From contig NZ_JAZHSD010000001.1 of the NCBI RefSeq assembly GCF_036924745.1, positions 1,116,001-1,180,000 on the forward strand: DNA of 64,000 bases. Reading direction: 5' to 3'. Position 1 is the stretch's first letter; each line of letters starts with the position of its first letter. The DNA comes from Bradyrhizobium sp. AZCC 1693. GTDB lineage: Bacteria; Pseudomonadota; Alphaproteobacteria; Rhizobiales; Xanthobacteraceae. Shown piece by piece: positions 61,976 to 64,000 of the stretch. Both the position numbers and the translations under genes were made by a program. Under the pieces are notes generated by a model. That model searched no databases, was not told the DNA's origin, and saw only the letters and a list, made by a program, of their open reading frames with translations.

Positions 61976-62418
61976 CTACAAACAAAGGCTGAGAATCTTC
62001 AGTCGGCAACTCTCAGTCGCGCGCGCTTTAGGCCTTGCGGCGGTTGCCTGCTTTGAATCCTTCGGCGAACTCTTTGGCGAACCCTTCGGCTTCTTGGGAC
62101 GCTCATAGTCGCCTGCGATCACCATGGCCCAATACATGCGGCCGGTCTTCGCGCTTTTCACGCTGGCTACACCGACGCGCGTGGCGCCGGGCAGCAGCAG
62201 GTTTTTTCGGTGCCCTGACGAATTGATCCACTGGTCGAGGGTTTTGGGAAAGCCGTCATAGCCGTACGCAATGTTCTCCGCGGCTCGGCCGGCCCCCGCC
62301 GGGCTGACACGCGAATTGAATCGGCCGAGGACATCGTGATCCAGTTGGTCCTTTGCCGCCATCGCCTGGGCTTGATCGTGTGCAATCCGTGTGAGAGCAG
62401 CATCCAGGGTTACGCGCT
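61976..62418 (-). pseudogene. CAP/SCP-domain secreted protein, 3' part (split by IS110)
   Basis: Codes the body of a CAP-superfamily protein: RVTLDAALTRIAHDQAQAMA, LDHDVLGRFNSRVSPAGAGR, AAENIAYGYDGFPKTLDQWI and NSSGHRKNLLLPGATRVGV, then a Lys/Pro-rich tail. The conserved His and the GHRKNLL motif are present. The signal peptide and first residues are at 63715-63858 on the other side of the IS110 element. The two pieces are in the same frame when joined through a shared CT, giving KHGE-RVTL. Confidence 0.88.
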
Positions 62419-62419
62419 T

Positions 62420-62447
62420 CTTGTGTCCGCAAAATCTGCCAGAATAT
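62420..62447 (+). promoter_or_regulatory. Candidate promoter of the IS110 guide RNA
   Basis: CTTGTG at 62420-62425 and GAATAT at 62442-62447, spaced 16. This puts a start near 62453, where the first stem-loop begins. In the excised circle, TTGCTT at the junction could act as a stronger upstream element. Inferred from spacing only. Confidence 0.4.
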
Positions 62448-62452
62448 GCGAA

Positions 62453-62605
62453 CGGGCGGCTCAGACCAACCGCCCGTCGCTGGATCTGAGCCCGTTCGCG
62501 CTCAAAGGCCTTGAGAGCCTGTCGGGGAGCGAGGGACAGATCCGGTGTCTTCCTCAACCCGAACAGTTGCATGGGCTGCGAGCCCGAACCGAGCAAGGAA
62601 GGGAG
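62453..62605 (+). ncRNA. Candidate IS110 bridge RNA
   Basis: By eye: a 5' stem-loop CGGGCGG/CCGCCCG (62453-62459, 62470-62476); a first loop closed by GGATCTG (62482-62488) and CAGATCC (62537-62543); an inner hairpin AGGC/GCCT (62506-62509, 62517-62520); a second loop with hairpin GGGCT/AGCCC (62573-62577, 62581-62585). Guide matches: CGCGCT at 62497-62502 equals the left target half 62413-62418; CGGGGAG at 62523-62529 is complementary to the right half CTCCCCG at 63715-63721; ACAGTTGC at 62563-62570 equals the element's own right end plus core base at 63708-63715. A right donor guide is less clear (CAAGGAAG at 62594-62601). Confidence 0.7.
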
Positions 62606-62608
62606 TGG

Positions 62609-63607
62609 ATGATGGCACAAAATGAGGTCGTTGTCGTCGGTGTTGATGTGGCCAAGGACAAGGTGGATGCATGCATTCGCTCGCTGTCTCAACGGCAGAC
62701 GTTCCCGAGCACCGCAGAGGGGCGGCACGCATTGATCCGCTGGCTTCGCAAACACAAGGTCGGCAAGGCAGCCATGGAGGCTTCCGGCGGTTATGAGCAG
62801 GACTGGGCCAAGGCGCTGCGCGAGGCCCGCATCGAAGTCCGGATCGTTGACCCGAAGCGGGTGCGCAGCTTCGCCCGCTCGGCCGGACGCCTCGCCAAGA
62901 ACGATCCGATCGATGCGGAGATGATCGCCTGGTTCGCCGAGACCTTCACCGACGCGCCGGGCCAGGCCTTCGACGCGGCACGCGAGAGGCTGGTCAAGAT
63001 CGTCAATGCGCGCCAGGGACTGCTCGATCTGCAGACCAGCTTGAAAAACAGTGGCGAGCATTCTGTGCCGGACGTCGTGCAGAAAATGCAGGCGCGGCTC
63101 TTGAAGAAGATTGCCGTCGAAGTCGCCAAGCTCGAGACCGCGATCTCCGCCATGGTCAAAGCGACGGCGCATTTTGCCGAGCTCGCCGAGATCATCGAGA
63201 GCGTGCCGGGACTTGGTAAGATCACGTCCGCCGGACTGATCGCGACGATGCCGGAACTGGGCCAGGTGAACGACAATATCGCCGCGGCCTTGCTGGGGGT
63301 AGCACCTTACGATGACGATAGCGGCCAACGGCGGGGCAACCGCCACATCAAGGGCGGGCGCCGCAAGGCCCGCAACCTCTTCTACATGCCTTGCATGGGA
63401 GCTGCGACCCAGCACAACCCCGTGCTCAAGGCGTTCTATGATCGCCTGATCGCCAAGGGAAAGGAGCCGAAGGTTGCGCTCACCGCCTGTATGCGCAAGC
63501 TCATCGTCATCCTCAACACCATGATCGCGCGACGCCAAAAATGGGACGCCAACCGTTACAAACCGAGCGACCCCGCTCGGCTTCCGCCGAGCGCATGCCC
63601 AGCCTAA
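62609..63607 (+). CDS. IS110-family transposase (DEDD)
   Basis: About 331-332 residues from ATG 62609 or 62612, both served by GGAAGGGAG. The N-terminal RuvC-like domain shows VVGVDVAKDKVDACI, AMEASGGYEQDWA and KNDPIDAEMIAWFAE with the acidic tetrad. The C-terminal domain has VPGLGKITSAGLIATMPELG and LLGVAPYDDDSGQRRGNRHI then GGRRKARNLFYMPCMGA. Both domains appear intact. The upstream frame to 62336 is part of the host gene region and not a start. Confidence 0.94.
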   Translation: MMAQNEVVVVGVDVAKDKVDACIRSLSQRQTFPSTAEGRHALIRWLRKHKVGKAAMEASGGYEQDWAKALREARIEVRIVDPKRVRSFARSAGRLAKNDPIDAEMIAWFAETFTDAPGQAFDAARERLVKIVNARQGLLDLQTSLKNSGEHSVPDVVQKMQARLLKKIAVEVAKLETAISAMVKATAHFAELAEIIESVPGLGKITSAGLIATMPELGQVNDNIAAALLGVAPYDDDSGQRRGNRHIKGGRRKARNLFYMPCMGAATQHNPVLKAFYDRLIAKGKEPKVALTACMRKLIVILNTMIARRQKWDANRYKPSDPARLPPSACPA

Positions 63608-63714
63608 CGACCGGTGAGCGGACGGGGTCAAGGCCGTCAGCCGCCGGAGGCGGTGGCGCGTAGCGCCAGCCTTGAGCCCGGCCGATCACAGGTCTACGTG
63701 TAAAAACACAGTTG

Positions 63715-63858
63715 CTCCCCGTGCTTGAGCCGAAAATCAGAAATCATCTGCGCGGGATTGGCCGCGGCCGTTCGGCTCAGGACTGTGGTGGCAAGACAAA
63801 GCGCCAGCCCCAGCAAAAGAGCCTGCCGCGCCAAAATGGCTGTCTTCCTGCCCGTCAC
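63715..63858 (-). pseudogene. CAP/SCP-domain secreted protein, 5' part (split by IS110)
   Basis: From GTG 63858 with AGGGG seven bases upstream: VTGRKTAILARQALLLGLAL then CLATTVLSRTAAANPAQMIS and DFRLKHGE, i.e. a Sec signal peptide and the start of the mature protein. Past the CT at 63715-63716 the frame reads into the IS110 end (QLCFYT then stop). Remainder is at 61976-62418. Confidence 0.88.
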
Positions 63859-63938
63859 AAGTATTCCCCTGCCCCTTCCCAATTGAGACCGCTGGCAAGA
63901 TTCAATCCGAAAAATACGCAGCAAGTCATTGAAATTAT

Positions 63939-63983
63939 TGGTCGGGGCAACAGGATTCGAACCTGTGACCTGCAGTACCCAAA
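63939..63983 (-). tRNA. tRNA-Pro(UGG) 3' half, fragment (probable att site)
   Basis: On the minus strand: TTTGGGT (anticodon loop, TGG at positions 34-36), ACTGC, AGGTC, ACAGG-TTCGAAT-CCTGT, then the acceptor end TGCCCCG-ACCA. The bases 5' of the loop (ATTGG) do not pair with ACTGC, so the 5' half is not here. This is a 45-nt tRNA remnant, as left at one end of an element that integrates in a tRNA 3' half. Confidence 0.75.
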
Positions 63984-64000
63984 CCAATTGCATTTGCATT

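What the first reader, a model, noticed from the sequence alone, without database searches (positions are those of the whole stretch)
62453..62605. IS110 element with a readable bridge RNA whose guides match the gene it split
Seen: between the element's left end and its transposase start, the RNA can form a 5' stem-loop and then two loops. In the first loop, CGCGCT (62497-62502) is identical to the left target half ending in the shared CT, and CGGGGAG (62523-62529) is complementary to CTCCCCG on the right side. Both flank an AGGC/GCCT hairpin and are enclosed by the perfect stem GGATCTG/CAGATCC. In the second loop, ACAGTTGC (62563-62570) equals the last bases of the element plus the core C. 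Known: IS110-family recombinases use a bridge RNA from the left non-coding end with a target loop before a donor loop. Inference: this is such an RNA, with target TACGCG-CT-CCCCG. The three matches fall in the right order and arms, which is hard to get by chance. Uncertain: the right donor guide (CAAGGAAG vs ideal CAAGAAG).
Basis: partly seen in the sequence, partly recalled or inferred. Interest (0 to 1): 0.88.

Follow-up and report, generated by a model that had tools for sequence, protein, structure and literature searches.

The report
IS110 transposon with bridge RNA
A small jumping gene in a Bradyrhizobium chromosome appears to encode a guide RNA that tells its enzyme where to insert; the guide letters match its insertion sites and change together with them in relatives, which makes it a clear but expected example of a mechanism described in 2024.

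Summary
The element (body 62422-63714, CT core at both ends) is an IS110-group insertion sequence with an intact DEDD transposase. Its left end encodes a bridge-RNA-type RNA: target loop, then donor loop. Five identical copies lie in this 7.6 Mb Bradyrhizobium genome. In relatives the left guide follows its own left target (53 distinct element-site combinations) and the right guide its own right target (42); 0 of 5,000 permutations reached either observed score, overall or within target classes. A covariance model finds the RNA beside IS110 transposases across the order; 29 of 34 pairs there show two-sided changes, and right guides match again (91 of 105 bases). Four of four intact homologues of the split CAP gene show the empty site was ACGCGCTT-CT-CCCCG, not TACGCG-CT-CCCCG. 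The window copy is thus atypical: its left guide fits fully only if one target base bulges out. Expression, binding and activity were not tested. Verdict: a well-supported new member of a known kind. Side observation: a distant branch uses a CC core with matching guide changes.

The parts
62420..62421 (.). left core dinucleotide CT
   Evidence: empty sites in four of four intact homologues and junctions of the other copies
62422..63714 (+). element body (TGTG...GTTG), 1293 bases
   Evidence: five identical copies; empty sites
63715..63716 (.). right core dinucleotide CT
   Evidence: 19 loci whose alignment reached the right end all read GTTG then CT
62440..62603 (+). region modelled as bridge RNA (probable RNA from about 62450 to the start codon)
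   Evidence: alignment A1, model R1; 5' and 3' ends of a transcript not tested
62452..62477 (+). 5' stem-loop
62480..62545 (+). target loop closed by CTGGATCTG/CAGATCCGG
   Evidence: 9 of 9 pairs with two-sided changes in A3
62497..62503 (+). left target guide CGCGCT plus core C
   Evidence: co-varies with the left target
62506..62520 (+). AGGC/GCCT hairpin between the target guides
62523..62529 (+). right target guide CGGGGAG (pairs CT-CCCCG)
   Evidence: co-varies with the right target
62548..62602 (+). donor loop closed by TCTTCC/GGAAGG
62563..62570 (+). left donor guide ACAGTTGC, equal to the element's right end plus core C
   Evidence: the variable C/T base agrees with the element end in 21 of 21 distant members
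62573..62585 (+). GGGCT/AGCCC hairpin inside the donor loop
62594..62597 (+). probable right donor guide CAAG (pairs CTTG); short and weakly supported
   Evidence: read with the corrected core
62609..63607 (+). IS110 transposase, 332 aa, intact
   Evidence: PF01548 E 4.3e-19, PF02371 E 9.4e-16; IS621 E 3.7e-35
62413..62418 (+). left target CGCGCT; followed by the extra T at 62419
63717..63721 (+). right target CCCCG
61976..62419 (-). 3' part of the split CAP-domain gene
   Evidence: PF00188 E 3.6e-14
63717..63858 (-). 5' part of the split CAP-domain gene (start codon by analogy with L040)

Best explanation
This is an IS110-group insertion sequence whose left non-coding end encodes a bridge RNA. 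The first loop of the RNA pairs with the two strands of the target: the left guide with the bottom strand, the right guide with the top strand, both including core bases. The second loop pairs with the element's own circle junction (ACACAGTTG-CT-TGTGT). The transposase would use the RNA to exchange strands at the shared CT core and insert the circle, leaving only the core repeated. Shown here: open transposase frame, exact junctions, conserved RNA structure, guide-target and left-donor-guide co-variation. Inferred: transcription, RNA-protein binding, circle formation and catalysis. The usual target of this subfamily is a host repeat; the window copy sits at an imperfect secondary site inside a CAP gene, where the left guide fits fully only if one target base (62419) bulges out.
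For: Both IS110 domains and homology to IS621 and ISCro4. Five identical copies and empty sites in four of four homologues. Left guide matches 5-6 of 6 target bases in 49 of 53 combinations; right guide matches 4-5 of 5 in 29 of 43; 0 of 5,000 permutations reach either total, also within target classes. Out of sample: 91 of 105 right-target bases in 21 distant members against 39 +/- 7 permuted, 0 of 20,000. Structure: 29 of 34 pairs with two-sided changes, covariation 0.478 against 0.165 shuffled and at most 0.095 slid. Of 34 distant model hits with at least 900 bases downstream, 26 have an IS110 transposase there.
Against: No transcript, binding or transposition data. The single-sequence fold is unremarkable. 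Within the genus covariation is weak: 4 of 34 pairs with two-sided changes, and sliding by +3 columns gives the same covariation score as the true structure, 0.029; RNAalifold also pairs part of the left donor guide with CAAC. The order-wide alignment was fitted to the structure. Fourteen of 43 right guides match only 0-3 of 5 bases. The window copy itself matches its left target at 1 of 6 bases without a bulge. Shared descent is not removed from the permutations.
Confidence: 0.96

Rival explanations
1. The matches are chance or composition effects in GC-rich DNA, and the transposase chooses sites by protein-DNA recognition alone.
For: Taken singly the 6- and 7-base matches are not rare (6.6% and 4.8% of shuffles); 14 of 43 right guides match poorly.
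Against: Guides follow targets across 53 and 42 combinations and in 21 distant members, beyond all permutations, also within target classes.
Confidence: 0.02
2. The window copy inserted at GCGCT-CT-CCCCG without any bulge, and the extra T (62419) was gained afterwards in this strain.
For: The other four copies in this genome have no such extra T.
Against: Four of four intact homologues already read GCGCTTCTCCCCG, and L040 keeps the CAP reading frame with it.
Confidence: 0.05
3. The element is decayed: the RNA and the transposase are relics without activity.
For: No activity was measured.
Against: Five identical copies at different sites, an open transposase frame and the catalytic residues in place.
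Confidence: 0.05

Closest known systems
IS621 bridge-RNA system (PMC11208160: sections 5, 6, 7, 9, 12 and passages; PMC11208158: passages)
   Same: Homologous transposase (E 3.7e-35), RNA in the left end, 5' stem-loop then target loop then donor loop, left guide to bottom strand and right guide to top strand, core in the pairings, CT core, insertion into host repeats.
   Different: Different guides and target; the window copy needs a one-base bulge on the left; right donor guide read here as four bases, against a discontiguous nine-base pairing described for IS621. The IS621 RNA itself was not aligned here.
ISCro4 (PDB 9t56)
   Same: Homologous transposase (E 1.1e-33).
   Different: Not compared at RNA or target level here.
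seekRNA of IS110/IS1111 elements (PMC11187229: abstract and one section)
   Same: RNA from the non-coding region upstream of the transposase in the IS110 type, matching both target strands; each IS has its own target.
   Different: The elements tested there are others; no direct sequence comparison was made.

Membership tests
IS110 family, IS110 group | Transposase with DEDD_Tnp_IS110 and Transposase_20 domains | tested here: met
   PF01548 and PF02371 above cut-off
IS110 family, IS110 group | Catalytic D, E, D, D and S | tested here: met
   D13, E57, D99, D102 align with the IS621 residues; S238-G239 corresponds to S241-G242 only if the two-residue gap that HMMER placed nearby is removed (my reading)
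IS110 family, IS110 group | Insertion at a short core shared by target and element, core at both ends | tested here: met
IS110 family, IS110 group | Left non-coding end longer than the right | tested here: met
   187 against 107 bases from the coordinates
Bridge RNA | Conserved structure: 5' stem-loop and two internal loops | tested here: met
   on an alignment fitted to the structure; weak within the genus
Bridge RNA | First loop pairs with both target strands | tested here: met
Bridge RNA | Second loop pairs with both donor strands | tested here: inconclusive
   left donor guide agrees with the element end in 21 of 21 (informative only at one C/T base); right donor guide only CAAG, not tested statistically
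Bridge RNA | RNA is expressed and bound by the transposase | not testable with these tools
   needs RNA sequencing and binding assays
Bridge RNA | RNA needed for recombination; site moves with the guides | not testable with these tools
   needs a recombination assay
IS1111 group | Right non-coding end longer than the left, RNA in the right end | tested here: not met
   right end 107 against left 187 bases; RNA model lies in the left end
Rfam families (release 15) | Match to a curated RNA family over the RNA | tested here: not met
   no match over 62422-62610 in 62000-64000 at E up to 5

The most novel reading that the evidence does not exclude
This transposon lineage shows natural re-programming of nearly every part of the bridge-RNA code: target guides among close sisters, a donor-guide base across genera, and in one distant branch the recombination core itself (CC instead of CT, with left guide, right guide and right donor region changed to match). 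The window copy adds a natural insertion in which the left guide works with one target base bulged out. If the CC branch is active, the second core base, described as almost invariant for IS621 and its orthologues, can change.
Probability: 0.6. Interest if true: 0.55.

Novelty: new member of a known kind. Interest (0 to 1): 0.36.

Why it matters
It is a cleanly readable natural case of RNA-guided transposition in rhizobia. Five identical copies, known empty sites and dozens of sisters with other guides let the guide-to-site rule be tested from sequence alone. It adds a probable natural example of tolerance for an extra target base, which bears on the off-target behaviour of bridge recombinases. 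The CC-core relatives suggest recombinases with a different core requirement, which would widen the choice of sites.

Tried and rejected
An element start at CTTGTG was rejected because left and right cores then disagree between subfamilies.

Single-sequence folding gave nothing useful. The host repeat had no Rfam match in the three copies scanned at gathering thresholds. PMC5082802 (passages only) describes Br-REP1 and Br-REP2; the partial consensus lines shown do not resemble this repeat. A promoter across the circle junction (TTGCTT, 17 bases, CAGAAT at 62440-62445) was read by eye and not tested.

Limits of the counts. In some searches the right end was found by searching for GTTGCT, so those rows cannot show that the end is constant; the independent check is (19 of 19 loci whose alignment reached the end). 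L062 had no readable left end and was left out. L082 carries one C fewer in its guide; in the common register it matches 1 of 6, shifted by one base it matches fully, so it is a second case needing a one-base shift. In distant members the left-guide test was less clean than the right: of 11 with a readable left junction, the contiguous match from the core was 4-6 bases in 7 and 0-2 in 4, with the register chosen as best. L137 and L127 had no right end, so 21 of 23 distant rows were used; where one search listed several right ends I kept the one with the donor motif. The right-end pattern already required AGT[C/T]G, so one search is informative only at the C/T base. For A3 I used 23 of 25 distant loci with a transposase match (L146 and L151 not used). 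In one search I left out same-genus hits (L103-L107, L126, L131, L132) and copies of the same elements. The copies of G336 could not be resolved, and in G398 the left register was ambiguous.

Full report
What is there. The window is bases 1,116,001-1,180,000 of a 7.6 Mb single-contig genome. The genus is Bradyrhizobium, judged by the titles of the closest named loci. At 62422-63714 lies an insertion sequence with an open 332-aa transposase frame (62609-63607) that carries both IS110 domains. Its solved relatives found by sequence are IS621 (8wt6, E 3.7e-35) and ISCro4 (9t56, E 1.1e-33). The IS621 catalytic residues named in PMC11208158 (passages) correspond to D13, E57, D99, D102 and S238; for the serine this needs removing a two-residue gap that HMMER placed beside it (my reading). 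Five copies in this genome are 100% identical, which suggests recent movement.

Junctions. The element splits a CAP-domain gene on the minus strand (PF00188; window fragment E 3.6e-14, intact homologue L040 E 3.8e-17). Four of four intact homologues examined read GCGCTTCTCCCCG at the site. The reading that fits both junctions is ACGCGCTT-CT-CCCCG, with core CT at 62420-62421 and 63715-63716. With the corrected core the circle junction is ACACAGTTG-CT-TGTGT, and the 19 loci whose alignment reached the right end all read GTTG followed by CT.

RNA anatomy. Between the left end and the start codon the RNA shows a 5' stem-loop (62452-62477), a target loop (62480-62545) and a donor loop (62548-62602). 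Left target guide CGCGCTC 62497-62503, right target guide CGGGGAG 62523-62529, left donor guide ACAGTTGC 62563-62570, probable right donor guide CAAG 62594-62597. The order and strand logic are those described for IS621 in PMC11208160 (sections 5, 6, 7, 9 and 12 read; passages). Folding this sequence alone does not show the structure (z -1.31; 18 of 200 shuffles as good). Within the genus, 41 distinct RNAs form 96.8% of the proposed pairs, but only 4 of 34 pairs have two-sided changes, and sliding the partners by +3 columns gives the same covariation score (0.029), so this set alone is weak evidence. RNAalifold recovers the stem-loop and both closing stems but also pairs part of the left donor guide; 2 of its 39 pairs have two-sided changes.

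A covariance model built from these 41 RNAs found matches in 30 of 295 genomes sampled from the family and 21 of 397 from the order (five same-genus genomes are in both). On 33 rows (10 of the kind used for the model, 23 distant ones chosen because a transposase match lay in the locus), 92.9% of cells pair, 29 of 34 pairs show two-sided changes, and the covariation score is 0.478 against 0.165 in shuffles and at most 0.095 when slid; that alignment was fitted to the structure. Of 41 distant hits examined, 34 had at least 900 bases downstream, and 26 of these 34 showed an IS110 transposase there at E up to 1e-3; 8 did not.

Guides and targets. From the genus search (139 of 265 genomes with some match, many partial), extra regions and named contigs (21 loci), 73 element left ends gave 53 distinct element-site combinations. 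The left guide matches its own left target at 6 of 6 bases in 34, 5 in 15, 4 in 2 and 1 in 2 (the window copy, and L082, both of which need a one-base shift). The right guide matches 5 of 5 bases in 17, 4 in 12, 3 in 8, 2 in 5 and 0 in 1 of 43. Permuting partners never reached the observed totals in 5,000 trials, for left (320 against 182 +/- 15, 53 rows) or right (166 against 105 +/- 8.7, 42 rows), nor when permuted only within a target class (303 +/- 3.6 and 154 +/- 3.3). Shared descent is not removed by this. Out of sample, 21 distant elements match 91 of 105 right-target bases (permuted 39 +/- 7, 0 of 20,000); reduced to 14 distinct guides, 59 of 70 (24.5 +/- 5.5, 0 of 20,000). The variable C/T base of the left donor guide agrees with the element end in 21 of 21 (13 C, 8 T).

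What the five copies say. Three copies (L003-L005) sit in a host repeat with 18 matches in this genome at up to 3 mismatches, against 0 for the reversed control; 3 of the 18 are occupied by this element. The other two interrupt genes: the CAP gene here, and a transporter-like gene at L002 (by eye). The right target matches 5 of 5 in L001-L003 and 4 of 5 plus a wobble in L004 and L005. The left target matches 6 of 6 in L004 and L005, 5 of 6 in L003, 4 of 6 plus a wobble in L002, and in the window copy 1 of 6 ungapped but 6 of 6 with one bulged T. As background, 14 CT-CCC[C/T]G sites occur in the 64 kb window on both strands; one reaches 5 of 6 with a one-base bulge and none without. PMC11208160 reports off-target insertions, typically with one or two mismatches, and some sites that seemed to tolerate insertions in the target, so the window copy looks like a natural secondary site of that sort.

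Side observation: a CC core. Distant relatives L128 and L147 end in GTTG-CC rather than GTTG-CT. A search with L128's transposase (10 of 397 order genomes at E up to 1e-60) and reading of junctions in 26 loci (25 from that search plus L128) gave eight elements in 19 loci with CC at both ends: L128; L178; L179; L180, L188, L192, L196; L181, L189, L193, L197, L200; L182, L190, L194, L198, L201; L183; L186 (the same element as L147). By my reading of the sequences, their left guides carry CC, their right guides GG opposite the core, and their right donor region reads CACAGG instead of CAAGG. The right target beyond the core fits well in some (5 or more bases in L128, L178, L179, L182, L186) and poorly in others (L180, L183, and some L181 copies). 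The other seven loci of the 26 keep CT (L184 and its four sister copies, L187, and the right end of L185). Against a simple rule, L134, L138, L139 and L152 also show CC after the donor end while their right guide reads CT. PMC11208158 calls the second core base almost invariant for IS621 and its orthologues; PMC11208160 tested AT, GT and TT cores. A library search for 'core dinucleotide' with IS110 returned only those two papers; a CC core may be described in papers that are not held.

Verdict. It is ordinary for an IS110 element but unusually well documented by natural variation.

Noticed in passing
L128, L178-L183, L186, L188-L190, L192-L194, L196-L198, L200, L201 (distant genomes of the order): Eight IS110 elements in 19 loci with core CC at both ends and guides changed to match CC, against CT in the window element; four further elements (L134, L138, L139, L152) show CC at the right end without a matching right guide.
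   Followed up: partly
L085-L102 (own genome): A host repeat of roughly 100 bases (CTTCCCTGCGCAATGG...TTACGGCTTAT...CGYGCTCTCCC), 18 matches at up to 3 mismatches, three of them occupied by this element; no Rfam match in the three copies scanned.
   Followed up: partly
L026-L037, L048-L057 (other Bradyrhizobium): Sister subfamilies with other left guides (ACGCCC and TGCGCC types) sit in other repeat-like flanks (GTGACGATCGCG...ACGCCC; CGGTCTTCCCTGCGCC); the latter shares its left half with the repeat hit by the window element.
   Followed up: partly
L002, near locus position 1480: Another copy of the same element interrupts a gene that looks like a membrane transporter (by eye, no family search).
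   Followed up: no
L094, near locus position 1500: One unoccupied repeat copy lacks two bases at the core (GCGCGCT-CCCTGG), a possible slip or remnant.
   Followed up: no
window 63942-64000, minus strand: A tRNA-like stretch cut off by the window end, 18.9 bits, below the Rfam threshold of 29; it lies upstream of the split CAP gene.
   Followed up: no
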